From: a virus
Strand: one strand, 5' to 3'
Virus record (IMG/VR): IMGVR_UViG_3300035183_001290
Span: 1 to 42,918 of that record
Length of the DNA stretch: 42,918 bases
The notes below the pieces were generated by a model, which saw nothing but the letters and a program-made list of their open reading frames with translations, had not been told where the DNA came from and did no database searches. A program made the translations under genes and the position numbers. Within the stretch, counting starts at the first letter, position 1, and the number at the start of each line of letters is the position of its first letter. This document shows, piece after piece, positions 1 to 20,762 of this stretch.

Positions 1-777
1 CCGTCGATGTTGTCGTTGATAACGTTGTCCAGGTCAGTGGTGTCGCTGAACAACCGGTTCGGGTAGACAACGTTGTTCTGGTCAGTGGTGTCGTTGAGCA
101 ACCGGTTCGGGTAGACAACATTGTTCAAGTCAGTGGTGTCGCTGAGCAACCGGTTCGGGTAGACAACGTTGTCCAGGTCAGTGGTGTCGTTGATTTCGTT
201 CGACCCGTCGATGTTGTCGTTGATAACGTTGTTCAAGTCAGTGGTGTCGCTGAGCAACCTGTTCGGGTAGACAACGTTGTTCAAGTCAGTGGTGTCGTTG
301 ATTTCGTTCGACCTGTCGATGTAGTCGTTGACAACGTTGTCCAGGTCAGTGGTGTCGCTGAGCAACCGGTCCGAGTGGATGGGGTTGTTCAAGTCAGTGG
401 TGTTGCTGAGCAACCGGTCCGAGTGGATGGGGTTGTTCAGGTTAGTGGTGTCGTTGATTTCGTTCGACCTGTAGATGTCGTCGTTGATAACGTTGTCCGG
501 GTCAGTGGTGTTGCTGAACAGCCTGTTCGGGTAGACAACGTTGTCCAGGTCAGTGGTGTCGTTGATTTCGTTCGACCTGTTGATGTCATTGTTCAAAACC
601 CATCTAGCCCGACTATTTCCGGGGTTGTTCAAGTCAGTGGTGTTGCTGAGCAACCGGTCCGAGTGGATGGGGTTGTTCAGGTTAGTGGTGTCGTTGATTT
701 CGTTCGACCTGTAGATGTCGTCGTTGATAACGTTGTCCGGGTCAGTGGTGTTGCTGAACAGCCTGTTCGACTTAGTA
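1..777 (+). repeat. Coding tandem repeat array 1 (48/60-bp units, 108-bp composite)
   Basis: Near-identical in-frame direct repeats: a 48-bp unit (16 codons) alternates with a 60-bp unit (20 codons), with single substitutions between copies. Bases 381-529 and 621-769 are identical over 149 bp at a 240-bp offset, which points to recent duplication. A linker encoding NPSSPTISG (about 594-620) interrupts the array and recurs in array 2. Confidence 0.93.
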
Positions 778-1382
778 ATGTTGCGATTTCTCCTGGTGGA
801 GGTCTCCAAATTGAAGGGCGACCGTTAAATATCAGGGGGGCTTATACTGCGCCGTTTCGAATTATTCTTGGTTCCCAATTAACTTCTGGGGATATACTTT
901 CGTTTAGATATTTGGGACCTTCCGGAGTTTGTGTTGTTACACGCATTTATTTGGGGGTAGTGACGACTGCCGGCTTTGGAACATCATCAACACTTTTTAT
1001 GGCTCTTCGACGTTATACTAACTGGACGACTAACGATTCTGGGTTTGGGGCGGTTAGTACTTATTTGACGAAAAAGTCGCCGTCGTATCCAGGGTCCAAT
1101 GTGTTCACTTTGCATACACAAACAGCAAACACACCGCTTACACAGGGAACTAGTACATTTGTTGGCGATATTTCTCCTGTAGAGGTTGTTATACCTGCCA
1201 GCACGGTAGCCAATCTTTTTCCCTTGTCAGAAGTTTTTGCATCAGGGGGCGCTTCTGGAGATCACCCACTAATTTTTAATCCGAATGAAGGACTTCGCCT
1301 TTTTACTGGTGGTACTAATGGTGGCAGCGGAACATTTGAAGTTTTCGGCGTCATACATTACTTTGAAGCGTCGCAATGGTGA
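1..1382 (+). CDS. Repeat-containing tail fibre / virion surface protein (5' partial)
   Basis: The frame (codons from base 3) is open from the window edge to TGA at 1380-1382, so the gene starts upstream; the GTG at 375 lies inside a repeat and is not a credible start. About 260 residues are a repeat array alternating a 16-residue unit (VVQVSGVAEQPVRVDN) and a 20-residue unit (VVQVSGVVDFVRPVDVVVDN), with 14 VSGV cores visible. A non-repetitive domain of roughly 200 residues follows, rich in G, T, S and aromatics and ending FEVFGVIHYFEASQW. A valine-rich short repeat followed by a globular C-terminus fits a fibrous beta-rich shaft with a terminal head domain. The next gene carries the same repeats. 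The family is not recognised; the fibre role is inferred from architecture and from lying in a phage structural region. Confidence 0.7.
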   Translation, partial: VDVVVDNVVQVSGVAEQPVRVDNVVLVSGVVEQPVRVDNIVQVSGVAEQPVRVDNVVQVSGVVDFVRPVDVVVDNVVQVSGVAEQPVRVDNVVQVSGVVDFVRPVDVVVDNVVQVSGVAEQPVRVDGVVQVSGVAEQPVRVDGVVQVSGVVDFVRPVDVVVDNVVRVSGVAEQPVRVDNVVQVSGVVDFVRPVDVIVQNPSSPTISGVVQVSGVAEQPVRVDGVVQVSGVVDFVRPVDVVVDNVVRVSGVAEQPVRLSNVAISPGGGLQIEGRPLNIRGAYTAPFRIILGSQLTSGDILSFRYLGPSGVCVVTRIYLGVVTTAGFGTSSTLFMALRRYTNWTTNDSGFGAVSTYLTKKSPSYPGSNVFTLHTQTANTPLTQGTSTFVGDISPVEVVIPASTVANLFPLSEVFASGGASGDHPLIFNPNEGLRLFTGGTNGGSGTFEVFGVIHYFEASQW

Positions 1383-1424
1383 TTCCATATTTACTATTAA
1401 TTAGGTCAAATTATTGAAATCATC

Positions 1425-2885
1425 ATGGCTTTTCAACACAAGCTTCCCGCTATTCCGCCTCAGCCATTTTTGGCTAATGGCACGGTTGATGGTCAAGTCA
1501 GCATTGCCCAGCCTGGGTTATTCAAGGTTGGTCAAAATATTGTCATTGGATCATCTTTTTTACCATCGCTCAAAGCAGCAATAAAACGGATCGACTCGGG
1601 CATCATTTTTGTTGGACCTATTGATAATAATCCAGATAGTCGCTTGGATATTTCTGCTTATGGAGCTGGGAGTTCATTTATTTTCGCCAATGAACAACTT
1701 CGACCGTTTATTCCAAAAGACGAATTAATCCCGAATTTTCGTTTAGAAGATTACGAATTTGAAGAAGAACCTGTAGTCGCCCGTCGATCTATCCTTGTCG
1801 ACGCTGAAGGTGAGAAAATTGGTGTGGTTGTGGTGTCTGGTGTTCGGCGTTTGGCAGTCGATACCAGTGTTTCGATCCCCTCAGTCACGATCACACAGAG
1901 TGGTATTCAGAATGTACATGTCGATAATGTTGTCCAGGTCAGTGGTGTCGCTGAACAGCCTGTTCGGGTAGACAACATTGTCCAGGTCAGTGGTATTGTT
2001 GATTTCGTTCGACCTGTTGATGTTGTTGTTCAAAACCCATCTAGTCCGACTATTTCCGGGGTTGTCCAGGTCAGTGGTGTCGCTGAGCAACCGGTCCGAG
2101 TGGATGGGGTTGTCCAGGTCAGTGGCGTCGTTGATTTCGTTCGACCTGTCGATGTCGTCGTTGACAACGTTGTTCAAGTCAGTGGCGTCGCTGAACAGCC
2201 GGTCCGAGTGGATGGGGTTGTTCAGGTCAGTGGTGTCGTTGATTTCGTTCGACCTGTCGATGTCGTCGTTGACAACGTTGTTCAAGTCAGTGGTGTTGCT
2301 GAGCAACCTGTTCGGGTAGACAACATTGTCCAGGTCAGTGGTGTCGTTGATTTCGTTCGACCTGTAGATGTCGTCGTTGACAACGTTGTTCAAGTCAGTG
2401 GTGTTGCTGAACAGCCAGTCCGAGTGGATGGAGTTGTTCATGTCAGTGGTGTCGTTGATTTCGTTCGACCTGTCGATGTTGTTGTTGATAATGTTGTCCA
2501 GGTCAGTGGTGTTGCTGAACAGCCTGTTCGGGTAGACAATATTGTTCAAGTCAGTGGTATCGTTGGTGTCATACAGCCGGTTCAGACGACTGTTAGCGGA
2601 GTAGTAGCTGTTTCTGGTGTTGCTACACAAACAGTATTTTATAATAGGCAATGGTTAGATGTTGAAAGTTTAGAACGGCAAACGTCTATTCGAATTGATT
2701 ATTCAGGAATAAGTCCAATATTTATTGGTGAGGCACCGCCGGGATCGTCGACTTCGGCTCCTGTCTGGCGAATTCGTCAAATTGTATATGTTCCTGGTCC
2801 GAATCCAAGTCAAATAATTTGGGCGGACGGAGACACAAATTTTGACAACATTTGGGATAATCGAGCGTCGCTGAGTTATAGTTAA
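1425..2885 (+). CDS. Repeat-containing tail fibre / virion surface protein
   Basis: 486 residues from ATG 1425 to TAA 2885; the upstream ribosome binding site is weak. Residues 1-140 are non-repetitive and may be the virion-attachment part. Residues about 140-395 are the same valine-rich array as in the preceding gene, with at least 12 VSGV/VSGI cores and one NPSSPTISG linker. The last 75 residues form a small domain with GEAPPGSSTSAPVWRI and a terminal DNIWDNRASLSYS, an ending I associate with small beta-rich phage virion proteins. The stop overlaps the next start by one base. Role (fibre or decoration) is inferred; the partner it attaches to is unknown. The array is open in several other frames on both strands, but those are by-products of the repeat composition. 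Confidence 0.75.
   Translation: MAFQHKLPAIPPQPFLANGTVDGQVSIAQPGLFKVGQNIVIGSSFLPSLKAAIKRIDSGIIFVGPIDNNPDSRLDISAYGAGSSFIFANEQLRPFIPKDELIPNFRLEDYEFEEEPVVARRSILVDAEGEKIGVVVVSGVRRLAVDTSVSIPSVTITQSGIQNVHVDNVVQVSGVAEQPVRVDNIVQVSGIVDFVRPVDVVVQNPSSPTISGVVQVSGVAEQPVRVDGVVQVSGVVDFVRPVDVVVDNVVQVSGVAEQPVRVDGVVQVSGVVDFVRPVDVVVDNVVQVSGVAEQPVRVDNIVQVSGVVDFVRPVDVVVDNVVQVSGVAEQPVRVDGVVHVSGVVDFVRPVDVVVDNVVQVSGVAEQPVRVDNIVQVSGIVGVIQPVQTTVSGVVAVSGVATQTVFYNRQWLDVESLERQTSIRIDYSGISPIFIGEAPPGSSTSAPVWRIRQIVYVPGPNPSQIIWADGDTNFDNIWDNRASLSYS
1920..2566 (+). repeat. Coding tandem repeat array 2, homologous to array 1
   Basis: Same 48/60-bp alternating unit as at 1-777, including the NPSSPTISG linker (about 2031-2057). 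The last units decay toward 2640 (VSGIVGVIQPV, then VSGVATQTV). Two long, highly similar direct arrays only about 1.1 kb apart make a good substrate for recombination that could change fibre length or swap end domains. Confidence 0.92.
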
Positions 2886-4069
2886 TGATGGCGTATACAT
2901 TTAATCCTTTTACCAGTAATCTAGATTTTTTTAAAAGCGAACAAGAGCTAGATCCAACGCTTATTCCTACCGATCCCCGATATTTTCTTCTTGCTGGTCG
3001 TCCTGGAGGTCAAATCGGGGCTGGAGGGACTTCAACGAGTGATTCGCTGACTTTTCAGGCGAACGCGCAGCCCTTTGCGTCCGGGAACACAGGACGGATT
3101 CGGTTCTTAGAACGTATTAAGCCGTTAGATGCTGATATTACATTTGCTACGAACGGGACGGTAAATGCGATTGAGTTTACTGGACGGACATATACTTTAT
3201 CTTCAACCGCGGCATTTATTCGTGGGCTTTCTTTCGAGAATGAGCTTCGGTACACGACTCAGCCAGCTTTTGGTGTCACACCTCCATTGCTCAATTTCTC
3301 CTCAGTAATTCGCGCCGTGGGTTCAATGACACTAACGTCAACGCCGACATTCACAAGCCAGCCAAACTTCACCGCCGACGGTGGGGTCTGGACGATGCCG
3401 AATAGTATCGCGCCGTTTTTTGACAATCCGTCCTTTAGTGTCGCGAATTCCGGCAGTTTCGCCTCGACCTCATCGTATCCAAGCATCCGACTTCAGTGTA
3501 CCGTCAACACGGGCGTCACGCTCAACGAGCGCGTTGGTTTGCTTTTCACCGACGCGGGCGGGGCCGGCGCAATCGCCACGCAGGTCGGCGTAGACATCCA
3601 GGCTCTTACGAAGGGCAGTACCGCCAACATTTCCCTGCGCTCCGTCGGTGCTAGTGTGCAGATGCAGCACGCTGGCCCTGCCGTTTTCGGCGCAACCGGA
3701 AGCCCGAATGCGAATCTCATGATGGATGTAAACGGCGGGCTTGCAGTGCGCGGTACGAGTATCACGTTGGCGAACGGCACCAATACCGCGGTCAACGTCG
3801 GCAATCGCTCGCTGGTCGATGTGACTGGACCGACGGCGGCCTTCACCATTGCTGGCATCGCTGGCGGCGTCAATGGCAAGCTCTTGATCATCGTGAACCG
3901 CACGACGCAGAATATGACTATCGCGCATGAGTCTACGAGCGAGACGACAACGGCGAACAGAATCAACACATCAACGGCAGCGAACGTTACCACAACTGGT
4001 GCCGGATACGTGACGCTGGTCTACTCGGCAGTGGCATCGCGCTGGTTGCTCCTTGCCTCCCAGCTCTGA
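2885..4069 (+). CDS. Phage virion protein, tail fibre-like
   Basis: 394 residues starting ATG ATG at 2885/2888, overlapping the upstream stop (TAATG). The N-terminus MAYTFNPFTSNLDFF is of a kind common at the start of small phage structural proteins and may be a virion-binding peptide. The middle is Thr/Ser/Asn-rich beta-type sequence. The last 65 residues (GKLLIIVNRT to GAGYVTLVYSAVASRWLLLASQL) resemble a C-terminal domain found in many phage fibre or appendage proteins. DNA composition changes inside the gene: the first about 400 bases are like the neighbours, while about 3300-4069 is much richer in G+C (42 of 60 bases at 3541-3600), so the C-terminal part looks separately acquired. Function is inferred. 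Confidence 0.7.
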   Translation: MMAYTFNPFTSNLDFFKSEQELDPTLIPTDPRYFLLAGRPGGQIGAGGTSTSDSLTFQANAQPFASGNTGRIRFLERIKPLDADITFATNGTVNAIEFTGRTYTLSSTAAFIRGLSFENELRYTTQPAFGVTPPLLNFSSVIRAVGSMTLTSTPTFTSQPNFTADGGVWTMPNSIAPFFDNPSFSVANSGSFASTSSYPSIRLQCTVNTGVTLNERVGLLFTDAGGAGAIATQVGVDIQALTKGSTANISLRSVGASVQMQHAGPAVFGATGSPNANLMMDVNGGLAVRGTSITLANGTNTAVNVGNRSLVDVTGPTAAFTIAGIAGGVNGKLLIIVNRTTQNMTIAHESTSETTTANRINTSTAANVTTTGAGYVTLVYSAVASRWLLLASQL

Positions 4070-4120
4070 TGGCGCTTGCTGCGGCACTCTGAACGAATTG
4101 CTCAATAGTGAGGAATTAAT

Positions 4121-4402
4121 ATGGCACAGTTAACGACTTCGCAATTAGTGATTCTTGAACAGGCAATTAGAGGATATTTGCAGGATCATAATCAGGATCC
4201 CGCGCCGATGGCAACATTGCTTACACTTCCCATTTCACAGGTGTCGCAATTGTTACAACCCTATGTCCAGCAACAGGAACAGGCATATCAAAACACAGTC
4301 GCTGCGCTCCCACAAATGCGTGCTCAACAGGACGCTGTCCTTGCCGCCCAAGGCGCAGATATTGCTGCGGTATTGACAGCAATCAGCAATGGAAGCCTTT
4401 AA
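4121..4402 (+). CDS. Small hypothetical protein, Gln/Ala-rich, helical
   Basis: 93 residues from ATG 4121 with a good ribosome binding site (GAGG about 8 bases upstream). The sequence is Gln- and Ala-rich and predicted mostly helical (MAQLTTSQLVILEQAIRG at the start; QQQEQAYQNTVAALPQM in the middle), ending DIAAVLTAISNGSL. No known family recognised. It sits between fibre-like genes and the head module; a small virion component or assembly factor is possible but unsupported beyond position. Confidence 0.65.
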   Translation: MAQLTTSQLVILEQAIRGYLQDHNQDPAPMATLLTLPISQVSQLLQPYVQQQEQAYQNTVAALPQMRAQQDAVLAAQGADIAAVLTAISNGSL

Positions 4403-4442
4403 CGATACAGACATATATGACCTTTGATCAACACGTGCTTTT

Positions 4443-4634
4443 ATGAAAATTGTGGATATTTACAAAAGGAAAGAAGAATTAATAAAAGAGTTGCAGAGCG
4501 TAATGGAACAATTAAACGTGTATACTCAGGCGAAATTTCGTTTGGAAGGGGCGATTGGCATTCTCAATGAAATTATTGACAATGAAGATGTTTCAAAAAA
4601 AGAGCCAAAATCTGGTACAAAAAAGACAGAATAA
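4443..4634 (+). CDS. Small hypothetical coiled-coil protein
   Basis: 63 residues from ATG 4443. Charged heptad-like sequence (KRKEELIKELQSVMEQLNVY) predicts a short coiled coil, followed by a hydrophobic helix (LEGAIGILNEIIDN) and a Lys/Glu-rich tail. No family recognised. Similar small coiled-coil proteins are common next to phage head assembly genes, but no specific role can be assigned. Confidence 0.6.
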   Translation: MKIVDIYKRKEELIKELQSVMEQLNVYTQAKFRLEGAIGILNEIIDNEDVSKKEPKSGTKKTE

Positions 4635-4702
4635 GAATGTTCTCGGGGCAGTAGCGAGTTATAAATTGTTGAAACGGTTTGTTAAAAAGAGTTGATAATA
4701 AT

Positions 4703-4918
4703 ATGTTTACCAAAAGAATCGCCGCAGAACACGCGCATATCGTAGATCCCGAGAAGGGAAAAATTGCTCGAATATTTAAAAAACTAGGAAAATCAGAAGC
4801 TACGGAGCTTGAACTTTTGCGTGCGGCCAAAGACATGGGTCTACAATTAACCGGTCTTCGCACGTATTGTGAAATAGATGCGAATGGTCTTTTGCGTCCG
4901 AAGCAGTGGAGTGAATAA
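4703..4918 (+). CDS. Small hypothetical protein upstream of prohead protease
   Basis: 71 residues. ATG 4703 (MFTKRIAAEHAHI) is preferred over an in-frame TTG at 4679 because AAAGAG lies upstream and the TTG has no clear site. The stop TAA (4916-4918) overlaps the ATG of the protease gene by one base, so translation is probably coupled. The sequence is basic and helical in its first half (EKGKIARIFKKLGKSEATELELLRAAKDMG). No family recognised; its coupling to the protease/scaffold gene suggests a head-assembly role by position only. Confidence 0.6.
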   Translation: MFTKRIAAEHAHIVDPEKGKIARIFKKLGKSEATELELLRAAKDMGLQLTGLRTYCEIDANGLLRPKQWSE

Positions 4919-7101
4919 TGTTTATTAAGACGGCACAAATATCTGTAGAGACTGTTTTGGATAAAAATACATTTGAGAAAAGGCATGCTGCCAAGAAAAT
5001 TGTGGAATACGATCCAGAATTCGTGTATGTCGCCGTGCGCGCATTAACGGCAGACAAACCGAATAGTAACGGTGATTGTTTTCCGCACGACGAATTGATT
5101 CGGATTGATCCGATTTTGCATCGTCCGGTTTATGCATCATTTATTGGGAAAGGTGTGTACATTAATCATCGTCACACGGATGATCCAACACAGGCGAAAG
5201 GAATTGTCCTTGACGCACGGTATGTCACTGCCAACGAAAATGACAAATATGTTGAACTATTACTAGCAATTGATAAGAAGCGTGACCCAGTTTTTGCTTC
5301 GAATGTTGAGCGGGGAATTATTAATAAATTTAGCATGGGGGCGTCCGTGCAATTTACGAAATGTTCCGTGTGTGGAAATGAAGCTCGTCGGAAGGAAGAT
5401 TTCTGTGATCATATTGCGAAATTTAAGATGCGGGAATGTGTCGCGCCGGATGGGACGAAAAAACTCGCTTTTGAGAAATGTTACGGGGTGACATATAACG
5501 AAATTTCCGCAGTATCAGATCCCGCTGATGAAACGGCACAGATTTTGGCAAAAATTGCTTCTACGAAACAGGGAAAAAGCGCTATCGAGAAAGAAAATAG
5601 CGTAAATTTGTCGCATGGAACAGTTGTATTATTGAACGAGATTAATGCTCGCCTAAAGAGCGTGGAGGCTGCCGTAATGCAGAAAGCTGCTCAGAAGAAG
5701 ATTGCTCAACCGCTTGAGCCTGAAAAGCCCCTCGGTGAGGAAACTCCCGATGCGGCTGTCGAAATCGAAGAGTCAATGCCGGAAGGGACGGAGCAACTCA
5801 TCCAAGTCCTTGATGCCATTAAGGAATTTGCTGAGGGCAAGATGCCGGCCGCTGATTTGGTTGAGACTTTGGAAGCATCAGGACTCGGTCCAGAGAAAGC
5901 TCCAGGAGAGCTTCCGCCTGGGGCTCAAGCAGGCGAGCCGCAGCCGCCAGCAACGGACATGGCTCCACAGGCATCTGCTCGCCGAGAATCTTTTAGTGCG
6001 CTCGTGGATAAGTTGGCACAAGAATATGCGAACAAAATGCAGAGGAGAGAAGCAGCAATGGTAACAAAGAACGCGGATAGTAAGAGCCCAAAGGTCGAGA
6101 AGGGGCAGTATCCTCATTATAATGTTCAGGACGATCCACCGCAGAGTGAGTCGAGTGTGTCTAAGTACAAGACACACAAGAGCCGTCCCGCGAGTGATTT
6201 CGATAGTGATGCCAAAGAATATGCAAAGATGTGGAATATTAGTGCGGAGTTTAAGCCACATGCCGACAAGCGGGAAGCGGCATGGGTTGTGTCTGATGGG
6301 GATACGCCACTCTTCAAAGTAACCGGCGCAGGGGCCTGGGAAGACATGCTCGATGAGAAGTGGGCGGAGTTTTCCAGTCGGGAGTACGGTGAAAATCTCG
6401 TCCGCGCTATCTTCGAGGATGGTCTTGAAAAGACTATGGAAGAGGTTAATGCCGAGCCTATTTCTGCACCAGCATCGGCGCCAACGACCGCGAGAGCAGA
6501 ACTCGATGAGAAATTGATTAAGGCGGCTGAGGCGAAGGCTGAGGATTTGGCAAATGAGAAGGTCGCCGAGTTCAAGACGCGGTTCCTTGAAGGCTTGAAA
6601 GTCGCTTTTGAATTGCAGAATAAGAACGTGATTGACAATCCCATTAAGGCGGCGGCGTATGAGGTGTTGACGGCGGCTGGGCATGATGGGTCGCTTGCTG
6701 AGAAGATCGCAGACGCGGAAATTGTCCAGACGCATTTTGATGAGGCGATGAAGGAAGCCCTTCGGTATTCAGAAATGACGCCGGAGGCATTTGAGGAAGT
6801 GAAGGCCCACGTAAAGTCTCTTCCTTCGACGCGGGTAGTCGAAGCTCAGGAGAAAGGGGTAAAGGACGAGGAATTAGCAAATATTGTTGCTGATGTTACG
6901 CGTGAAGCGATGAGCAAGCGTGCGGCAGTAAATGTCGGGGGTCTCCGTCCTTCGACAAGTGACGATATTGTAAAATCTCGTGATGACCGGCTTCGTGCCG
7001 CTGTCCGTTCCGGAATTTCGAAAACGGCAAATACGAGTCCGATTCGACCTCCGGTGTCTACACTCCGACGAGTTCGTGGCGGCGTAGTGGCCAGGATGTA
7101 A
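4918..7101 (+). CDS. Prohead maturation protease fused to a scaffold-like domain
   Basis: 727 residues. The first about 210 residues look like a herpes-assemblin-fold prohead protease: NSNGDCFPHDEL, then candidate catalytic His in YINHRHTDDP (H84/H86), candidate Ser in NKFSMGASV (S139), then NEISAVSDPAD, a pattern I associate with phage prohead proteases. A zinc-finger-like insert (C149, C152, C163, H165) lies just after the candidate serine. Residues about 230-690 are Ala/Glu/Lys-rich and helical, as in internal scaffolds; the C-terminus (about 690-727) is basic, ending RVRGGVVARM. The protein probably both scaffolds the prohead and cleaves head proteins, then releases the scaffold. Decoration and major capsid genes follow directly. 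Protease assignment is fairly firm; the scaffold role is inferred from length, composition and the position before the capsid gene. Confidence 0.83.
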   Translation: MFIKTAQISVETVLDKNTFEKRHAAKKIVEYDPEFVYVAVRALTADKPNSNGDCFPHDELIRIDPILHRPVYASFIGKGVYINHRHTDDPTQAKGIVLDARYVTANENDKYVELLLAIDKKRDPVFASNVERGIINKFSMGASVQFTKCSVCGNEARRKEDFCDHIAKFKMRECVAPDGTKKLAFEKCYGVTYNEISAVSDPADETAQILAKIASTKQGKSAIEKENSVNLSHGTVVLLNEINARLKSVEAAVMQKAAQKKIAQPLEPEKPLGEETPDAAVEIEESMPEGTEQLIQVLDAIKEFAEGKMPAADLVETLEASGLGPEKAPGELPPGAQAGEPQPPATDMAPQASARRESFSALVDKLAQEYANKMQRREAAMVTKNADSKSPKVEKGQYPHYNVQDDPPQSESSVSKYKTHKSRPASDFDSDAKEYAKMWNISAEFKPHADKREAAWVVSDGDTPLFKVTGAGAWEDMLDEKWAEFSSREYGENLVRAIFEDGLEKTMEEVNAEPISAPASAPTTARAELDEKLIKAAEAKAEDLANEKVAEFKTRFLEGLKVAFELQNKNVIDNPIKAAAYEVLTAAGHDGSLAEKIADAEIVQTHFDEAMKEALRYSEMTPEAFEEVKAHVKSLPSTRVVEAQEKGVKDEELANIVADVTREAMSKRAAVNVGGLRPSTSDDIVKSRDDRLRAAVRSGISKTANTSPIRPPVSTLRRVRGGVVARM

Positions 7102-7170
7102 TAAAACAGTGAGTAAATTTTTAAAAGAAAATAGTTTATAGAATAGAGCAACATCAGGAGGATTTGAGAA

Positions 7171-7920
7171 ATGGCACTAAAGGTGATTACACCGAGCTTT
7201 AACACGGGTGGGACGGGGGTCGGTGCGAACGATTACCGTTCCGGCATGGTCGCAGCTCTTGATGCCAACGGGCTTGCGGTACTTGCAGGCACCGAAGCAA
7301 CAGCAACGACCAATGGTCCGATGAATAAGGCTGTTGGAATCTTTGGCGAGGACCGGATTACGCAGACCTTGCAGCAGACCACGCAAGCGTTTGAGGAAGT
7401 TACGGTTACTTCTGGTGTTGCGGTTGCCTTGGCCCACAATGCGATTGTGTCAGGTTCTCAGCTCGTGGTGCGCAAGGACACGGGTCAGCCGCAGGTCGTT
7501 AACGTCAATTACACGATGGATTTCGTCAATGGGACGTTGACGAGCGTGAATATCCCGAGCGGAACTGTAGTCCAGGTCACGTATACCTTCCAGCTCAATG
7601 ATCAGAGTGAGAAGGATTTCCGTGGCGTGAATTTCAAGGGATCCGTTGATGAGACCGCCGGGAGCCACAAGGCAACGATTTGGAAAGGCTACGGTGAGTT
7701 TGATACGGATCAGTTCGTGACTTCGCAGTCGTATGCGGTAGGTGATATCCTCCGCTATACCCATAGCTCGCATCCGATGGGGGCTGGGTTGTTCACGAAT
7801 GAGGCGGCGGGGAGCACGGTCGTGGCGATTGCCGTTGGTCGGTGTCGGAAGGTCCCGACGGCTGCCGATCCATTCCTTGGTGTGGAGTGGCTTGGTCCGA
7901 AGGCGGATGCTACACCGTAA
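7171..7920 (+). CDS. Probable head decoration / structural protein
   Basis: 249 residues from ATG 7171, with a strong ribosome binding site (AGGAGG at 7158-7163). The N-terminus is Gly/Thr/Ala-rich (NTGGTGVGANDYRSGMVAALD). The middle holds a beta-rich segment (VVRKDTGQPQVVNVNYTMD, then a run of V/T strands to VVQVTYTFQLN). The C-terminal half has GYGEFDTDQF and a final GVEWLGPKA. It lies between the prohead protease and the major capsid gene, the usual place for a capsid stabilisation or decoration protein. The family is not firmly recognised; a virion role is very likely, the exact location on the head is inferred. Confidence 0.65.
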   Translation: MALKVITPSFNTGGTGVGANDYRSGMVAALDANGLAVLAGTEATATTNGPMNKAVGIFGEDRITQTLQQTTQAFEEVTVTSGVAVALAHNAIVSGSQLVVRKDTGQPQVVNVNYTMDFVNGTLTSVNIPSGTVVQVTYTFQLNDQSEKDFRGVNFKGSVDETAGSHKATIWKGYGEFDTDQFVTSQSYAVGDILRYTHSSHPMGAGLFTNEAAGSTVVAIAVGRCRKVPTAADPFLGVEWLGPKADATP

Positions 7921-7960
7921 TTAAGAAATTATTAGGACGAGTACGGGAGGTAATTAAGAG

Positions 7961-9124
7961 ATGGCCGCAAACACAAATCCCTATGTAAGGAGCGAGGAAA
8001 CCCGGCAGAAGATTGCTGCCCGCCTAAATCCGGAAACCCCGAGAGCATTTGGTGGACAGACGGCTACCGGAAAGGAACAGAAGAGCGCTGACCGCATGTT
8101 TGACAGTCGGAACACGCTCAATGCATACGATAAGGCCGACGCACTCCGTCAGATTCGCGCTCTACTTGATCGCGTTGCTTCTGGCGAAGAGCGGTTGCTT
8201 CCGGCTCGATCAGTGACTGCGGAGCACATCTCGCCTTCCGAGCGTGCGGATATTTTCCTTTCGGCATTCTCTGATCCAACGGGTCAGGGATTTGCGAAAA
8301 TTGGGCAGGAGCTACTTCTCCCAATTAAGGAAATCATCGACTACGAAGGTTTCGCACGGCGCATCTTGAAGACCTACACCCTCGCACAGGGGCAGGTCAA
8401 CCGTATTGACAAGGATGTGGACGTGGCTTCTTTCGTAGTATCGAAGGATGGTCGGGCAATTGAGACGCGCGTGTCCGATAATTACGTCTTCCCCGAAGAA
8501 TTCGAGGTAACGGCATTCCCCAGTATTCGCGTGAGTGAAGTCTTCCAGAAGCAGTTCGATGTGCTTGATCGTGCGCAGGATCGTGCCAAGCAGGCTATTA
8601 TGCGTGCGGAAGACCAGGGGTTGATGTCTGTGCTCTTGGCCGCAGCCCCGTCATTCAATGATACGGTGTCGTTCCCGAGCTTGAATTTGCAGGCTCTTGA
8701 ATCTATCCGATTCCAGGTTGAGCGGCATCGTTTGGTTACGAGCAAGTTCCTCATCAATCGTCGTGAGGTGTCGGACTTGGTCGTGTTCCTCTCCCAGCAA
8801 GTTGATCCAGTTACGGAGCGGGAGTGGATTATGATGGGATATGTGGGTCGGATTTTGAATGCGGATATTATCGCAACGGCTGGTACTCAGGTTGGTCAGG
8901 GCGGACTAGGTCGGTTGTCGGTGAACTGGGAAATCGTTCCGCCAGGTCGGGTATTCGCGGTTGCTGATCCAGAGTATCTCGGCGTATTCCCAATCCGTGT
9001 TGAGCTGTTTGCGGAGCCGGCAAACAAGTTCGTACTCGGCGAGCCACGGTATGCATGGCTCTTCTACGAGCTTATTAGCCAGGCGGTAATTAACCCGCGC
9101 GGCGTTGCGACGGGATCAAAGTAA
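7961..9124 (+). CDS. Major capsid protein (HK97-fold type)
   Basis: 387 residues from ATG 7961 with ribosome binding site GGGAGG. The N-terminal about 85 residues are charged and helical, as in capsid pro-regions; a protease cut near SVTAEHIS (about residue 85) is possible but not shown. The rest fits an HK97-type capsid: a long segment with SFVVSKDGRAIETRVSDNYV, a helix-rich middle (RAQDRAKQAIMRAEDQGLMS), a KFLINRREVSDLVVFL segment, and a beta-rich C-terminal part (VFAVADPEYLGVFPIRVEL). Size, order after protease and decoration genes, and a strong terminator directly downstream all fit the most highly expressed head gene. Assigned from order and pattern, not from a search. Confidence 0.8.
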   Translation: MAANTNPYVRSEETRQKIAARLNPETPRAFGGQTATGKEQKSADRMFDSRNTLNAYDKADALRQIRALLDRVASGEERLLPARSVTAEHISPSERADIFLSAFSDPTGQGFAKIGQELLLPIKEIIDYEGFARRILKTYTLAQGQVNRIDKDVDVASFVVSKDGRAIETRVSDNYVFPEEFEVTAFPSIRVSEVFQKQFDVLDRAQDRAKQAIMRAEDQGLMSVLLAAAPSFNDTVSFPSLNLQALESIRFQVERHRLVTSKFLINRREVSDLVVFLSQQVDPVTEREWIMMGYVGRILNADIIATAGTQVGQGGLGRLSVNWEIVPPGRVFAVADPEYLGVFPIRVELFAEPANKFVLGEPRYAWLFYELISQAVINPRGVATGSK

Positions 9125-9150
9125 TCCTTAAAGTCGTGAGTCCTTACGAA

Positions 9151-9182
9151 AAGGGATGGTCATTTGACCATCCCTTTTTTAT
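9151..9182 (+). terminator. Strong rho-independent terminator after the capsid gene
   Basis: GGGATGGTCA (9153-9162) pairs perfectly with TGACCATCCC (9165-9174); AA/TT extends the stem at the base, and a run of six T follows. It begins 27 bases after the capsid stop and separates the head operon from the accessory block. Confidence 0.92.
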
Positions 9183-9271
9183 TTTCTGAATTAAATAAAA
9201 TTGTTTTTTTCTCTTGAAAAAGACCTCATTCTCTTCATGCGAAACAGTTGTATGATATTGAGGTCAATCAC

Positions 9272-9520
9272 ATGGTATACCTGGATTGGATTACGGGTTT
9301 TATTACGTTAGTCGGGGTATACTTCACAGGTAAAAAACGGTGGTTTGGGCAAGCAATTCAATTCATTTCGCAAATATTTTGGGCAGGACTTATTGTTCAG
9401 AGACGGCTGTGGGGTCTTATTCCATTGGAACTTACTTTGTTTTATTTATACGCACGAAATGCCTGGCGATGGTATAGAGATGAAATCAATGGACGAAGCG
9501 TCCGTTTGTCCTCTTTGTGA
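9272..9520 (+). CDS. Small integral membrane protein
   Basis: 82 residues. ATG 9272 (MVYLDWITGFITLVGVY) is chosen over TTG 9248 because TGAGGT lies 8 bases upstream of it. Two or three hydrophobic segments: residues about 4-16, 25-40 and 45-60 (LWGLIPLELTLFYLYARN), with basic linkers (TGKKRW, QRR) and a charged tail. The layout resembles small PnuC-like or hypothetical phage inner-membrane proteins; a holin-like role cannot be excluded, but no lysis genes were identified nearby. The 3' end overlaps the next gene by 41 bases. First gene after the capsid terminator. Confidence 0.6.
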   Translation: MVYLDWITGFITLVGVYFTGKKRWFGQAIQFISQIFWAGLIVQRRLWGLIPLELTLFYLYARNAWRWYRDEINGRSVRLSSL

Positions 9521-9722
9521 AAAAGAATTTGTAAACAAAAGAGACAAGTTTCGGCATTTAGATCGTTGGGGGTGTCCTATAGCTTCGAGAGTTCTGGCTA
9601 AAGAATTCGCCCCGTTATGTGCCTGTGGGTGTGGCAATAAGGTTCAATTGAATAAAAGAAATCCAAAATACTATAATAAGTATGTTCAAGGACATAATAA
9701 AAGAGTAAAATTGAATACATAG
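9480..9722 (+). CDS. Small double zinc-binding protein
   Basis: 80 residues from ATG 9480, inside the end of the membrane-protein gene. Two metal-binding-like clusters: C10, C13, H26 and C32, then a cluster around CACGCG (C47, C49, C51) with H72 in YVQGHNKR. The second cluster looks like a zinc motif found near phage HNH or homing-type endonucleases, but no HNH or GIY-YIG catalytic core follows, so this is at most a stand-alone DNA-binding module. The longer open frame (from 9345) is rejected as it overlaps the membrane protein. Exact start is uncertain: M1 or M4 are both possible. Confidence 0.55.
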   Translation: MKSMDEASVCPLCEKEFVNKRDKFRHLDRWGCPIASRVLAKEFAPLCACGCGNKVQLNKRNPKYYNKYVQGHNKRVKLNT

Positions 9723-9730
9723 GAGGGAAT

Positions 9731-10465
9731 ATGGCAATCGTTAATGAAGAAGAGAATCGTCGTCGAGTTGAGGAACGCCTGAAGGAGGCGCTTCGCGATT
9801 TTTACGGCGACGAGAAGGTTTTGATCGTAAAAAATACGACGAAAGGCTGTGTGTCAATTGGGTTTGGGCGTGTCGGCAGTGAATCGGGTCATGTGGGGTA
9901 TTTGATCGAGCGGTCTCGTCTTCCGATCAATTTGACCGAAAAGTACCCCATCGAGTATTGGCGTGATTCTCCGGATTTTCGTCAGGCGCTAGCAAAGGGT
10001 TGGCTCCAAATCGTTAGCAAGGAAGAGTACGAACGCGCCCTCGAAGCCGAGCGGGCGCACGGGGCACGGTTGGCAGCTCTAGCAAAGAACGAGCAGCCGC
10101 GTCAACAGGCACACGATGTCGAGATCAATCCTCTTCAGGAGCAAGTAATTAATGAGCGCACGGCACAACTCGAACCTGCGACCAATGATCCAACTATCGC
10201 GGCGCAGGTTGCTGAATACGAGCGCCGACTAAATGAACCACCTCCGCCGCCGGTCCTCAAGGACGGACGATCCGCGCGTGCTGAAGCTCTCGTTGAGAAA
10301 ACCCGGCGTGGACAGATCACCTCACTCGATGCGCTAAAGGAACTTGATAGTGACGCGGACTTGTATACAGACGATGATTTGCTGTATATTTCGAAGCATG
10401 CGGAATATGAAAGTGTAAAGAGTTTTGCAACGAGCATTCTTACGGCACGGAGGAATCCAAGCTAA
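9731..10465 (+). CDS. Hypothetical phage protein with Glu-rich helical middle
   Basis: 244 residues from ATG 9731, ribosome binding site AGGAGGG. The N-terminal third contains a small alpha/beta segment (KVLIVKNTTKGCVSIGFGRVG) followed by WRDSPDFRQALAKGWLQIVS. The middle is charged and helical, with a proline stretch (NEPPPPPVLKDG), and the end is acidic (DSDADLYTDDDLLYISKHAEYE). No family recognised. Its stop overlaps the ATG of the next gene by one base. Could be a virion or head-tail joining component, but there is no direct sign of it. Confidence 0.6.
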   Translation: MAIVNEEENRRRVEERLKEALRDFYGDEKVLIVKNTTKGCVSIGFGRVGSESGHVGYLIERSRLPINLTEKYPIEYWRDSPDFRQALAKGWLQIVSKEEYERALEAERAHGARLAALAKNEQPRQQAHDVEINPLQEQVINERTAQLEPATNDPTIAAQVAEYERRLNEPPPPPVLKDGRSARAEALVEKTRRGQITSLDALKELDSDADLYTDDDLLYISKHAEYESVKSFATSILTARRNPS

Positions 10466-10719
10466 TGCCGAGTTTTCGTGATGTTCTGTGCCATTCGCGC
10501 CCGACCGTGAAAACGTTTTATCTGCACCGCCTTGAAGATGAATCGGGCGTGAGTGGGACGGGGATTGTTGCGGTAGGCGTCGAATTCCCCTCGGGTCGAT
10601 GTGTTATGGAGTGGGTCTCAAAAAAGACTGACGCGCATTCTCTTGGCATTTACGATGATATGGATGAACTCAAAAAAATTCATGGGCATGACGGAAAAAC
10701 GCGGGTTGAATATGCGTAG
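10465..10719 (+). CDS. Small hypothetical protein
   Basis: 84 residues, ATG 10465 overlapping the previous stop (TAATG). Contains a mixed beta region (TGIVAVGVEFPSGRCVMEW) followed by SLGIYDDMDELKKIHGHDGK, a pattern I recall from small uncharacterised phage proteins. No catalytic motif is visible. Translationally coupled to both neighbours; function unknown. Confidence 0.6.
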   Translation: MPSFRDVLCHSRPTVKTFYLHRLEDESGVSGTGIVAVGVEFPSGRCVMEWVSKKTDAHSLGIYDDMDELKKIHGHDGKTRVEYA

Positions 10720-10912
10720 TCGGAATTCAAAAGTTTCGGCAATTCCGTTTAAAAAAGATGCAGTCCGGGGGTATTTAGACCGGTGTATGAAGGCGTGGCG
10801 AGTCCAAGAACGGCGCGCACAAACATTGGAGGACGCTTTGGTTGCTCATACGTACCACGAAGCACTCCAAAGCGTAAAAGAGGCGTTGTTCGGTAATACA
10901 AAAAAGAGGTGA
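10712..10912 (+). CDS. Small basic hypothetical protein
   Basis: 66 residues if started at ATG 10712, inside the end of the previous gene (upstream in-frame ATGs at 10601 and 10688 are buried deeper). Basic, helical sequence (KKDAVRGYLDRCMKAWRVQERRAQTLEDALVAHTY) ending FGNTKKR. The TGA at 10910-10912 sits inside the AGAGGTGA that serves the iscU gene, so the two are coupled. No family recognised. Confidence 0.5.
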   Translation: MRSRNSKVSAIPFKKDAVRGYLDRCMKAWRVQERRAQTLEDALVAHTYHEALQSVKEALFGNTKKR

Positions 10913-10922
10913 TATTCACACG

Positions 10923-11327
10923 ATGGCGTATTCCGAGGCAGTACTTGATCATTATACCAATCCGCGCAATGTTGGGTCATTGCCAAAGGATGATCCGAAT
11001 GTTGGGACGGGAATTGTCGGCGCTCCAGAATGTGGAGATGTGTTGAAGCTTCAGATTCGCGTGAATCCAGAAACGGGGATTATTGAAGATGCGAAATTTA
11101 AAGCGTTCGGATGTGGTTCAGCTATAGCGAGTTCGTCGCTCACGACTGTATTGATTCTCGGAAAACATATTTCTGTGGCAACAGAAATTAAAAATCGTGA
11201 TATCGCCCGCGAATTATCCTTACCTCCGGTGAAATATCATTGTTCTGTTTTGGCTGAAGATGCAATAAAATCAGCAATTGCTGATTGGCGTAAAAAACAA
11301 GCACATCAGGATAATTTGAATTTATAA
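10923..11327 (+). CDS. iscU: IscU-type iron-sulfur cluster assembly scaffold
   Basis: 134 residues, close in length to bacterial IscU (about 128). From ATG 10923 it opens MAYSEAVLDHYTNPRNVGS and keeps the ligand residues: C37 and D39 in GAPECGDV, C64 in FGCGSAIASSS, H106 and C107 in KYHCSVLAEDAI. The LPPVK motif (100-104), the known docking site for the HscA chaperone, is intact, which separates it from SufU and plain NifU-type proteins. It should assemble [2Fe-2S] clusters with host IscS, HscA/HscB and ferredoxin; no such partner genes are in this window. The coding frame is unbroken and preceded by AGAGGTGA. Very close resemblance to proteobacterial IscU suggests acquisition from a host. 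Confidence 0.95.
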   Translation: MAYSEAVLDHYTNPRNVGSLPKDDPNVGTGIVGAPECGDVLKLQIRVNPETGIIEDAKFKAFGCGSAIASSSLTTVLILGKHISVATEIKNRDIARELSLPPVKYHCSVLAEDAIKSAIADWRKKQAHQDNLNL

Positions 11328-11345
11328 ATAAACTGAGGTGAAAAT

Positions 11346-11705
11346 ATGTGGAAATCTATAAAGACGATGATTTTGGCTCTACTATTGATGGGTAGCCCAG
11401 TCTTCGCCGACACGGTATGTCACACGTATCCTGATGATGCTGGACAAGTTGTAGGACCGCTAATGCCCCGTTGGGGGGGATCGTCGTATTTGAATGCGTC
11501 GTTTTCAGTTGAAATTGTCTCGGGAAGTGGGGCAGTCGGTTCATATCAGTTGCAAAAGGCAGATGGGAACAAGTTTTTCAATGTAGGATCTCCAGTGAAC
11601 GTCGAGGGTATTACGCCGTTTACGCCTGATTCAGACCGCTTTCAGGTCGTAATGATAACAGGTCCCGATCCTGGCACGACTGTTCTTGTGTGCCTTCATT
11701 TATAA
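11346..11705 (+). CDS. Small secreted/periplasmic protein of unknown function
   Basis: 119 residues from ATG 11346, ribosome binding site GAGGTG. A classic signal peptide is visible: basic start (MWKSIK), hydrophobic core (TMILALLLMG) and a cleavage site after SPVFA (about residue 21). The mature part is beta-rich (SFSVEIVSGSGAVGSYQL) and has two cysteines, near each end (C25 and C116), which could form a disulfide in the periplasm. It lies between the IscU gene and the convergent A-type carrier gene; the 11-bp gap to the latter holds no terminator. No family recognised; a cargo gene acting on the host envelope is plausible. Confidence 0.6.
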   Translation: MWKSIKTMILALLLMGSPVFADTVCHTYPDDAGQVVGPLMPRWGGSSYLNASFSVEIVSGSGAVGSYQLQKADGNKFFNVGSPVNVEGITPFTPDSDRFQVVMITGPDPGTTVLVCLHL

Positions 11706-11716
11706 TTTATAATAAA

Positions 11717-12031
11717 CTAGATCGCGAAAGATTGTCCACATCCGCACGTGCGGGAGGATCTGGGGTTTGACACCACAAACCCCGCTGATTGGAGAGTGTC
11801 TTTAAAATCTATTAACGAGCCGTTTAAAAATAGAAAACTTTTTCGATCAATAAAGACCTGCGCACCATTTTTCTCAAAGACTTTATCATCGGGGCGTTGT
11901 TGACCGATTTCCATTTTTAAGGTCAAACCGGCGCATCCCCCTCCTCGGACGGCTATGCGCAATCCGAACCCTTCTCCTTTGGAAGAGGCTAATTCTTGAA
12001 TTTTTGCCGCTGCTGCATCTGAAATTATCAT
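11717..12031 (-). CDS. iscA: A-type Fe-S carrier (IscA/ErpA/HesB family)
   Basis: 104 residues if started at the ATG at 12031-12029 (MIISDAAAAKIQELAS); an in-frame ATG at 12124 would add 31 residues unlike the family and overlap the next gene's start. The three metal-binding cysteines are present: C33 in RGGGCAGL and C96/C98 in SRTCGCGQSF near the C-terminus. Length matches bacterial IscA (about 107). This family carries Fe-S clusters or iron from the scaffold to apo-proteins. It is the only convincing minus-strand gene in the window and ends 11 bp from the secreted-protein gene. IscA and ErpA cannot be separated by eye, so the symbol is provisional. Confidence 0.93.
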   Translation of the reverse strand: MIISDAAAAKIQELASSKGEGFGLRIAVRGGGCAGLTLKMEIGQQRPDDKVFEKNGAQVFIDRKSFLFLNGSLIDFKDTLQSAGFVVSNPRSSRTCGCGQSFAI

Positions 12032-12038
12032 CTCTGTC

Positions 12039-12067
12039 TTTATTTCAACTGTTGACCGTTCTGTCAA
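12039..12067 (-). promoter_or_regulatory. Possible sigma70-like promoter for the iscA gene
   Basis: On the minus strand TTGACA (12067-12062) is followed after 17 bases by AATAAA (12044-12039), 4 of 6 matches to the -10 box. The implied start of transcription would be almost at the ATG (12031), leaving no room for a ribosome binding site, so this is weak support only. A separate promoter is needed because the gene opposes all its neighbours. Confidence 0.25.
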
Positions 12068-12117
12068 TATCCGAATCAGACCCGCTCGAAAAAAGTTGTG
12101 GTAAATAGGAGGGACGG

Positions 12118-13254
12118 ATGGCAATCACTCAAATCCCCGTTACATGCCCGGGAATTGATAGCGGGATTCAAATCACAAAAGGGGATACGAAGAGTATCCA
12201 GGTTTCCCTCGGGATTGATCTTACTGGCAGAACGGTTCAGCTTACGGTCAAAAGAAGCTCGACATCTGTCGATACTTTATTGGTGAAAACCGGAACTGTT
12301 CTCTCCCCGGTCTCATCCGGGAATGTCCAGTTCGATTTTGTTGCGACCGACACGGCGAATATTCCAGCGGGATTTTACTTTTTTTCCATTACGTCCAGTG
12401 TTGCGAACACGAATGTAATAACGCACGTTACGGGTCAGTTTATTCTACAACCTATTAATCAATCTCTTATTGGAAAAATTGAGCCAATTTTGTCATTGGG
12501 AATCACAAATTCCACTGAGCGCGTGAGTCTTGAAATTCACGATAAGGACGGTGTATTAGCAAATCCTTCTGAATTGTCATTACAAATTCTCGATTTTCAA
12601 GATAGTGTTATTACGAGTGTGACTTTTCCTGATCCCGCGATCATGAATCCGCAGGCGGGAATCTTTTTGTATGATTTTACTTCTGACCGCGCTGGGGACT
12701 TTTTGGTAATTTGGACAACGCGATTTCCGGATGAAGAACCTATCAAAACGATCAAGAACATTCGATTTGTTACTCCTGCGATGTTCCGCATGATCCCCGA
12801 AGTCTTGTTGTATATCGACAAGTCGCGGAAAGCAACGAACAAACCGATTGCGTTCAATGCGGTTGATGTCGCGGAGTACATCGCGAATGCGTTGCGCGAT
12901 TTTAATGCGACTCCGCCCACGACGACGATTGCGTTGGAAGAAATTCACGATGTATATAAAGAAGTCTTGATTCAAGGGGCGATTGTGCAAGCGCTTATCG
13001 CCCAGGGACTACTTGCGGTTGATCAAGATTTTCAATACAATGACAACGGGATCGCTCTCACCGTTGATCACAATTCGAAATTGATGGGATGGTATCAAGC
13101 ATTATTACAAGGGTACGTTTCAAAAAAGAAGCTCTACAAATGGAATTACTTTCAGCCGCATCTATACGCACGAACGATTGTGGGATCGACGTTTGCATTG
13201 GGATTTTCGAAACTTCCGGCTGGAGTTGCCAGCCGATTCCGTGGATGGATATGA
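12118..13254 (+). CDS. Virion structural protein with Ig-like N-terminal domains
   Basis: 378 residues from ATG 12118, ribosome binding site TAGGAGG. Residues about 15-115 and 120-220 look like two beta-sandwich domains (GRTVQLTVKRSS, PAGFYFFSITSS; then VSLEIHDKDGVLANPSEL, GIFLYDFTSDRAGDFLVIWT), of the kind seen in phage baseplate and fibre proteins. The last 150 residues are helical and then basic-aromatic (KLMGWYQALLQGYVSKKKLYKWNYFQPHLY). The stop is 6 bases before the next ATG. A neck, whisker or tail-associated role is plausible; the family was not recognised with certainty. Confidence 0.6.
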   Translation: MAITQIPVTCPGIDSGIQITKGDTKSIQVSLGIDLTGRTVQLTVKRSSTSVDTLLVKTGTVLSPVSSGNVQFDFVATDTANIPAGFYFFSITSSVANTNVITHVTGQFILQPINQSLIGKIEPILSLGITNSTERVSLEIHDKDGVLANPSELSLQILDFQDSVITSVTFPDPAIMNPQAGIFLYDFTSDRAGDFLVIWTTRFPDEEPIKTIKNIRFVTPAMFRMIPEVLLYIDKSRKATNKPIAFNAVDVAEYIANALRDFNATPPTTTIALEEIHDVYKEVLIQGAIVQALIAQGLLAVDQDFQYNDNGIALTVDHNSKLMGWYQALLQGYVSKKKLYKWNYFQPHLYARTIVGSTFALGFSKLPAGVASRFRGWI

Positions 13255-13260
13255 TGCGCT

Positions 13261-13539
13261 ATGATATTCGACGTAGACCGACCTATTGTCTTTGAAAAAG
13301 GCAAGTGTGTGTTATGTGGCAAAGAAGATGATGATTGGTTTATCATGCAACTTTTGTCTGATGGGGCGTGGCGGACATTTCCGCGTGGTATGTCGCTGCG
13401 CTCTCAAGGACTGGATGAGATTGATGCGAGTCATCATGTGTATTGTGTTCACAGTTGCTCCGAAAAGATTATGCGGACTTTTACAACAGACCGGGAAGTC
13501 AACGCGTTCCATATGGCGTTGCGTGAACGAGGTGGGTAA
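13261..13539 (+). CDS. Small Cys-rich, probably metal-binding protein
   Basis: 92 residues from ATG 13261; the ribosome binding site is poor, so translation may depend on coupling to the gene ending at 13254. Two cysteine pairs, C16/C19 (KCVLCG) and C62/C66 (YCVHSC, with H64), suggest a zinc-binding fold. The rest is charged. Its stop overlaps the hydrolase start by one base (TAATG). No known family recognised. Confidence 0.55.
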   Translation: MIFDVDRPIVFEKGKCVLCGKEDDDWFIMQLLSDGAWRTFPRGMSLRSQGLDEIDASHHVYCVHSCSEKIMRTFTTDREVNAFHMALRERGG

Positions 13540-14111
13540 TGGTGGGATACATAATTGGTGGATTTGCGAGCCTTAAGTGGTATTATGCGCCTTTTATGTA
13601 TCTCCTTAAAAAGCGAGGATTGACCGTAGAATTATTAAATCCCGGTCCATTGGGATTGAATATTTGGCCATTGTCTGTGTACGAAGCAGAAGTCAAAAAA
13701 GCGTTTGCACATATTGATGCCCCGATTTTTCTTATTGGGCATAGTCTTGGCGGTATTCAAGCCGTGTGGGCAGCGGCGATGTTTCCTCAGTTGGTGAAAA
13801 AAATTTTCGCCATTGGCGCACCGTTATATGGCTCGCCGTGGCCTATATATGAGGACGGAATTCGAACATTGTTGGATGTTACTCCTGAAGTGTATGATAA
13901 ATTTCGGTATGAAATTATTCCCCAATTCGCTTCTCGTCTTATCACGATTTCGTGTCCGCATGATGTAATGGCTCCGGTTGAAAAATGTGTAGTTCTGGGA
14001 GCAAAAAATTATGTTGTAGATGTTCAGGAAACATTTGTTCCGACCTCACATCTTTTGATTCCGTATTTGTCATCGTCATTGAATATTATTCAGAGAGAAC
14101 TTGAGACCTAG
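13539..14111 (+). CDS. Alpha/beta-hydrolase (lipase/esterase-like)
   Basis: 190 residues from ATG 13539, ribosome binding site GAGGTGGG. A nucleophile elbow GHSLGG places Ser69; candidate triad partners are D142 (SCPHDVMAP) and H171 (VPTSHLLIPY), in the expected order and spacing. The N-terminus (MVGYIIGGFASLKWYYAPF) carries the early beta strand and oxyanion segment, and GAPLYGSPWP follows the nucleophile, as in lipase/esterase and PGAP1-like enzymes. No signal peptide or membrane anchor, so the product is cytoplasmic or packaged in the virion. Substrate unknown: host lipid, envelope ester or surface polysaccharide ester are all possible. It is embedded in phage structural genes, which is unusual. 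Confidence 0.85.
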   Translation: MVGYIIGGFASLKWYYAPFMYLLKKRGLTVELLNPGPLGLNIWPLSVYEAEVKKAFAHIDAPIFLIGHSLGGIQAVWAAAMFPQLVKKIFAIGAPLYGSPWPIYEDGIRTLLDVTPEVYDKFRYEIIPQFASRLITISCPHDVMAPVEKCVVLGAKNYVVDVQETFVPTSHLLIPYLSSSLNIIQRELET

Positions 14112-14147
14112 TTGCTTTTCTTCCTTAAAGGAGTTATACGTTCGTAG

Positions 14148-15445: not shown

Positions 15446-15497
15446 GTCCGATTTGCAGAAAACATATTTCTCTCTTTACAATTCCCCAAAAATAGTT

Positions 15498-15530: not shown

Positions 15531-15534
15531 CATT

Positions 15535-20212: not shown

Positions 20213-20241
20213 ATATAAGTGAATGAAGAGGATTGCTTAAT

Positions 20242-20688: not shown

Positions 20689-20762
20689 TTGATATTTGTA
20701 GTAAAAGTCGTTTCCTTTCCTTTTTTTATCTATATCCTTTCCTTTTTCAAGAGTACAATAAG

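What the first reader, a model, noticed from the sequence alone, without database searches (positions are those of the whole stretch)
1..2566. Two adjacent genes share long, near-identical repeat arrays
Gene 1 (14 cores visible) and gene 2 (at least 12) use the same 16/20-residue units and even the same linker, but differ in N- and C-terminal domains. A 149-bp exact duplication (381-529 = 621-769) shows array growth. Crossing-over between arrays could change shaft length or fuse gene 1 to gene 2, providing another route to surface variation alongside the right-end cassette.
Basis: partly seen in the sequence, partly recalled or inferred. Interest (0 to 1): 0.65.

Follow-up and report, generated by a model that had tools for sequence, protein, structure and literature searches.

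The report
Phage fibre genes sharing repeat arrays
Two neighbouring genes of an uncultured contractile-tailed phage carry the same 16- and 20-residue repeats, probably the stalk of virion surface proteins; the repeats are shuffled and duplicated as DNA but conserved as protein, yet whether stalk length varies in nature is unproven because all three available assemblies break inside the arrays.

Summary
The 149-bp exact duplication, the two unit types, the shared linker and the core counts (14 and 12) all check out. The N-terminus of gene 1 is not in the window, however, because the contig begins inside its array, so the claim of different N-termini is unsupported. The window is a 42.9-kb fragment of a contractile-tailed phage. 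A sister contig (139.5 kb) is about 97% identical over window 4684-42670. Its surface-gene block differs: it has no gene 1 and no gene 3, its gene 2 is older-diverged (pS 0.30 against 0.05-0.08 for head genes), and its array has a different unit order. Between units, synonymous sites vary and amino acids hardly do (pN/pS about 0.15). Units do not cluster by gene. Identical stretches exceed every synonymous-codon shuffle. Recombination-driven, protein-constrained arrays are therefore well supported. Function as a fibre or adhesin shaft is inferred from the repeats, from the location between portal and protease genes, and from a C-terminal domain that elsewhere caps collagen-like phage proteins. 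Ongoing length switching and gene 1-gene 2 fusion are untested: one near-identical contig has the same gene 2 array, and all three contigs end inside an array. Ordinary in kind; modest interest.

The parts
3..1382 (+). Gene 1 (5' end missing, at least 459 aa visible): repeat array plus a C-terminal domain
   Evidence: Open frame running off the contig start; no Pfam, PHROG or PDB match
3..770 (+). Gene 1 repeat array: 14 units in the order A A A B A B A A B A B-linker A B A (A = 16 aa, B = 20 aa)
381..529 (+). First copy of the exact 149-bp duplication (units A-B-A')
   Evidence: exceeds all 200 synonymous-codon shuffles
621..769 (+). Second copy of the exact 149-bp duplication; sister assembly G002 ends inside it at 656
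492..770 (+). Block A'-B-linker-A-B-A' of gene 1, collinear with 1929-2207 of gene 2 (about 91-96% identical)
600..623 (+). Linker PSSPTISG, gene 1 copy
771..1379 (+). Gene 1 C-terminal domain, about 200 aa, orphan: found only in the identical contig G002
1425..2885 (+). Gene 2, complete, 486 aa: N-terminal domain, repeat array, C-terminal domain
1425..1919 (+). Gene 2 N-terminal domain, also present in the sister phage G001 (91% nt identity, pS 0.30, pN 0.027)
1929..2207 (+). Block of gene 2 collinear with the end of the gene 1 array; with 492-770 it flanks 771-1928 as a direct repeat, in frame
1929..2624 (+). Gene 2 repeat array: 12 canonical units, mainly A-B pairs of 108 bp, ending in degenerate units
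2037..2060 (+). Linker PSSPTISG, gene 2 copy
2667..2882 (+). Gene 2 C-terminal domain (NFDNIWDNRxSLxYS signature), shared with collagen-like and short proteins of unrelated uncultured phages
   Evidence: best-predicted part of the model, pLDDT about 70-86
2885..4069 (+). Gene 3 (394 aa), neighbour in the same variable block; not found in sister G001
   Evidence: sub-threshold Phage_depo_C similarity

Best explanation
Genes 1 and 2 encode virion surface proteins of a contractile-tailed phage, built as terminal domain + repetitive beta-rich shaft + C-terminal domain. The shaft arrays share one pool of units that is duplicated and exchanged, within and between the two genes, by homologous recombination. 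Purifying selection holds the amino-acid sequence of each unit almost constant. The genes sit in a variable surface-gene block between the portal and prohead-protease genes, and that block as a whole is exchanged between related phages. Shown here: the repeats, their DNA-level sharing, the pN/pS contrast, and the turnover of the block between sister phages. Inferred: the surface location, the shaft role, trimeric assembly, and any effect on host adsorption.
For: Exact 149-bp repeat and a 53-bp identity between genes, beyond all synonymous-codon shuffles. Collinear 279-bp block with a once-per-gene linker in both genes. Type A pS 0.46 against pN 0.068; type B pS 0.26 against pN 0.037; no clustering by gene (permutation p 0.72 and 0.68). 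Four gametes in 50 of 78 site pairs among A units; PHI-like p = 0.002 for A units, 0.012 without their last six bases. The sister contig is 96.6-97.5% identical over 4684-42670 but differs in the block; gene 2 N-domain pS 0.30 against 0.05-0.08 in head genes. Sister gene 2 array begins AG-AG-B instead of AN-B'-linker. Block position: portal and gene 2 in G001, protease and major head protein downstream. A relative (L037) has other long, fibre-like proteins in the same block, with a conserved 151/186-aa neighbour (44% identity). The gene 2 C-terminal domain follows collagen-like stretches in other phages. Sister phage encodes a RecA/UvsX-type recombinase.
Against: No family, PDB sequence or good structural match for the repeats. 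Models are low confidence (mean pLDDT 55.5 and 45.6), with no PDB fold hit at E <= 0.001, so solenoid and intertwined trimer cannot be told apart. No direct proof that either protein is on the virion. PHI-like test not significant for type B units (p 0.42) or for the first 21 bases of all units (p 0.81); recurrent synonymous mutation could make some of the four-gamete pairs. Only three contigs.
Confidence: 0.62

Rival explanations
1. Contingency or phase-variation locus: recombination between arrays happens often enough in natural populations to give shaft-length variants and gene 1-gene 2 fusions, which are selected for host range or surface variation.
For: In-frame direct repeats 492-770 and 1929-2207 flank the gene 1 C-domain and gene 2 N-domain; exact three-unit duplication; different unit order in the sister phage; all three contigs stop inside an array, as length mixtures would cause.
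Against: The only near-identical contig has the identical gene 2 array. Breaks inside arrays are also expected from repeats near or longer than a short read. No fused gene or length variant was found in the viral contigs.
Confidence: 0.18
2. Inert concerted evolution: the arrays drift by unequal exchange with no benefit from length change; the spacer need only be long enough and correctly folded.
For: Strong conservation of unit sequence but loose order (AAA and AA runs in gene 1, AB pairs in gene 2).
Against: Cannot be separated from the adaptive version with the present data; shared arrays in two adjacent genes could reflect a selected joint use.
Confidence: 0.45
3. The 149-bp duplication (and so the gene 1 array length) is partly an assembly artefact of short reads running round a repeat graph.
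For: The duplication is covered in full by one contig only; G002 ends inside it; the window itself starts in the array.
Against: The two copies have different flanks; the gene 2 array and the last 114 bp of gene 1's second copy are identical in a second assembly; the genes share a 279-bp block whatever the status of the 149-bp repeat.
Confidence: 0.2
4. The products are head fibres or capsid accessory proteins rather than tail fibres (position beside portal, protease and major head protein; compare SPP1 gp12).
For: Gene order; SPP1 gp12 is a trimeric collagen-like capsid accessory protein encoded just upstream of its major capsid gene (PMC6316719).
Against: Relative L037 carries, in the same block, a protein with weak tail and tail-spike matches and a CHB_HEX_C_1 protein whose counterpart in the window lies in the baseplate region, so the block is not purely a head block.
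Confidence: 0.4

Closest known systems
[quoted passage not shown]
   Same: Phage structural protein with a tandem array grown by internal duplications, with diverse configurations among lineages
   Different: BACON units are whole folded domains, described as stable within their lineage, in one gene; here the units are 16/20 aa, have no Pfam match, and are shared at DNA level by two adjacent genes
Collagen-like prophage fibre proteins (PMC3368898)
   Same: N-domain + repetitive shaft whose length differs by multiples of the repeat + C-terminal domain; gene 2's C-terminal domain caps collagen-like stretches in other phages
   Different: The repeat is not Gly-X-Y; the C-terminal domain here is not the Pfam Phage_fiber_C domain (no Pfam hit); trimerisation not shown
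SPP1 gp12, collagen-like capsid accessory protein (PMC6316719)
   Same: Repetitive accessory protein gene located in the head-gene block
   Different: 64 aa, collagen-like, single gene; no shared arrays
Parallel beta-helix or beta-solenoid adhesins and tailspikes (Ag43b, P22 tailspike)
   Same: Beta-rich repetitive models have these as weak top fold matches
   Different: Best E-value 0.08, models low confidence; not evidence of membership

Membership tests
Tandem-repeat phage fibre/adhesin (kind, not sequence family) | Tandem array of near-identical units inside an open reading frame, in frame | tested here: met
Tandem-repeat phage fibre/adhesin (kind, not sequence family) | Protein is on the virion surface | not testable with these tools
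   Only location among structural genes and domain company
Tandem-repeat phage fibre/adhesin (kind, not sequence family) | Array grows or shuffles by DNA recombination | tested here: met
   149-bp and 53-bp identities above synonymous-codon shuffles; units not grouped by gene; PHI-like p 0.002 for A units but not significant for B
Length-variable (contingency) locus | Different array lengths in the same population or species | tested here: inconclusive
   Identical gene 2 array in G002; different unit order in G001 but its contig stops after three units
Collagen-like phage fibre | Gly-X-Y repeat | tested here: not met
   Unit sequences VVQVSGVAEQPVRVDN and VVQVSGVVDFVRPVDVVVDN
BACON-domain array | Match to BACON or any Pfam domain repeat | tested here: not met
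   No Pfam match even at E <= 10 except a chance NYN hit
Diversity-generating retroelement target | Reverse transcriptase in the phage genome | tested here: not met
   No RVT_1 match in the window or in the 139.5-kb sister contig, controls ring; both records may be incomplete
Beta-solenoid or parallel beta-helix protein | Confident fold match | tested here: inconclusive
   Mean pLDDT 45.6-55.5; best PDB E-values 0.08-0.3

The most novel reading that the evidence does not exclude
Two adjacent phage surface-protein genes act as a recombination pair: their shared in-frame arrays exchange units and can delete the 1.4 kb between them, so that the phage population holds switchable shaft lengths and chimeric adhesins without a reverse transcriptase or invertase.
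Probability: 0.12. Interest if true: 0.6.

Novelty: new member of a known kind. Interest (0 to 1): 0.33.

Why it matters
It gives an undescribed repeat type for phage surface proteins, with DNA evidence that protein-conserved units are shuffled between two neighbouring genes, inside a block that turns over while the rest of the genome stays about 97% identical. It is also a warning for metagenomics: such arrays break assemblies, so the most variable surface genes are the ones most often truncated. If length switching were shown by long reads, it would be a simple route to varying adhesins in phages.

Tried and rejected
(1) Known family for the repeats or domains: none in PHROGs, Pfam or PDB sequences. 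(2) Relatives among annotated phages: no tblastn match for gene 2, its C-domain, its array or the gene 1 C-domain; the array query may be masked as low complexity. (3) Relatives in bacterial genomes: none confirmed. (4) Retroelement-driven variation: no reverse transcriptase. RecT also absent; RecA-type present in the sister. (5) Fold: two AlphaFold2 jobs gave low-confidence beta-rich models; no usable PDB match; viral-library hits with E <= 0.001 are mostly long proteins with TM about 0.2, apart from a small uncharacterised phage protein matching the C-domain. (6) Long minus-strand open frames 3-809 and 1881-2651 were taken as a by-product of repeat composition, not genes. (7) Gene 1 N-terminus: no viral contig continues it. 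(8) Baseplate gene in other carriers of the gene 2 C-domain: none found, so that domain does not appear tied to contractile tails (those records may be incomplete).

Full report
What the window is. It is a 42,918-base virus record. PHROG/Pfam matches include prohead protease (4918-7101), major head protein (7961-9124), tail sheath (18203-20212) and Baseplate_J (32701-34131), so it is a fragment of a contractile-tailed phage. The nearest annotated phage by major head protein is Virus Rctr197k, 44% identical.

The observation. Gene 1 is open from the first base of the contig to 1382, so its 5' end is missing. Gene 2 runs 1425-2885. Two unit types alternate: A, 16 residues, VVQVSGVAEQPVRVD(N/G), and B, 20 residues, VVQVSGVVDFVRPVDVVVDN. 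Gene 1 shows 14 cores and gene 2 shows 12, with two degenerate ones at the array edges. Each gene has one PSSPTISG linker after a B unit. The 149-bp exact duplication is at the stated coordinates. Units are conserved as protein, so some DNA identity is expected; but when codons are shuffled among synonymous positions of the two arrays, the longest exact repeat is on average 31 bp and at most 53 bp in 200 trials, against 149 observed, and the longest identity between the genes is at most 47 bp against 53. The one unsupported statement is that the genes differ in N-terminal domain: the gene 1 N-terminus lies outside the window.

How the arrays evolve. Among 15 A units pS is 0.46 and pN 0.068; among 10 B units 0.26 and 0.037, a ratio of about 0.15 in both. 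The protein repeat is thus held by selection while synonymous sites vary. Distances between units of different genes are no larger than within a gene (permutation p 0.72 and 0.68), and one A haplotype is identical in both genes (336 and 2061). Gene 1 492-770 and gene 2 1929-2207 are collinear, including the linker, at about 91-96% identity, and similarity stops sharply on both sides. Synonymous haplotypes of A units are mosaic: 50 of 78 pairs of common sites show all four combinations, and close sites are more compatible than expected in random order (p 0.002; 0.012 without the last six bases). For B units and for the first 21 bases of all units the test is not significant. Recombination, not just mutation, is the best reading for A units. 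The sister phage has a RecA/UvsX-type gene.

Comparison with sister contigs. G002 (IMGVR_UViG_3300036768_001360, 8,675 bp) is 100% identical to window 656-9330 and ends at 656, inside the second 149-bp copy. G001 (IMGVR_UViG_3300009503_000018, 139,527 bp) is 97.5% and 96.6% identical over window 4684-23227 and 23228-42670. Left of 4684 the two differ: G001 has portal (with an intein), a 151-aa and a 166-aa gene, then gene 2, and its contig ends inside the gene 2 array. Gene 3 is not found in it, and gene 1 is not found upstream of gene 2 or elsewhere in the record except for the shared repeats. Its gene 2 array starts AG-AG-B, not AN-B'-linker. The gene 2 N-domain has pS 0.30 between the two phages, while the major head protein and its neighbour have 0.08 and 0.05, so gene 2 has a different, older history: the block is exchanged separately from the backbone. 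A more distant relative (L037, head protein 83% identical) keeps the 151/186-aa gene (44%) but has other long proteins there, one with weak tail and tail-spike matches, and no array.

What the proteins are. No database family matches the arrays or the flanking domains. The last 65-70 residues of gene 2 form a domain with an almost invariant NFDNIWDN motif found in about a dozen other viral contigs, where it ends short proteins or collagen-like (Gly-X-Y) proteins. That company, plus the location among structural genes, supports a surface-fibre reading and makes a trimer plausible (collagen-like prophage fibres are trimers with C-terminal trimerisation domains, PMC3368898). AlphaFold2 gives repetitive strands at unit spacing but at low confidence (mean pLDDT 55.5 and 45.6), and Foldseek finds only weak matches to beta-helical adhesins and tailspikes. 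Whether the array is a solenoid or an intertwined trimer is open.

Is it a variation mechanism? Anatomy allows it: the repeated block flanks 771-1928, and recombination between the blocks would delete 1437 bp in frame. Evidence that it happens at present is lacking. The near-identical contig has the same gene 2 array; no fused gene was found in the viral contigs; and the ends of all three contigs inside arrays can be due to short reads alone. I therefore rate recombination history as well supported, the shaft role as likely, and active switching as possible but unproven.

Novelty. Phage structural proteins with tandem arrays that grow by duplication (crAssphage BACON, PMC6949934) and shafts whose length differs by repeat multiples (PMC3368898) are known. 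What is new is the repeat sequence itself and the DNA-level sharing of one unit pool by two adjacent genes. That makes it a new member of a known kind.

Noticed in passing
window 41697-41964 and 42667-42904: Imperfect direct repeat (81%, with a 99-bp exact core 41786-41884 = 42726-42824) covering the 3' end of the 2194-aa gene and the start of the next gene; the sister phage G001 does not continue with this second copy and has a different gene after 42670.
   Followed up: partly
L005 1634-5023 (sister phage G001): Portal protein gene interrupted by an intein-like insert with a LAGLIDADG domain.
   Followed up: no
L037 1218-6200: In a relative, the same block holds long fibre-like proteins whose N-termini look like secretion signals, and a CHB_HEX_C_1 protein similar in domain to window 34128-34730.
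   Followed up: no
L006-L018, C-termini: A mobile C-terminal domain with an invariant FDNIWDN motif, no Pfam or confident PHROG match, attached to many different phage proteins including collagen-like ones.
   Followed up: partly
L005 5495-5995: The 166-aa gene before gene 2 in G001 itself contains a short exact tandem duplication (IRRPALSKKEVLLT twice) near its start.
   Followed up: no
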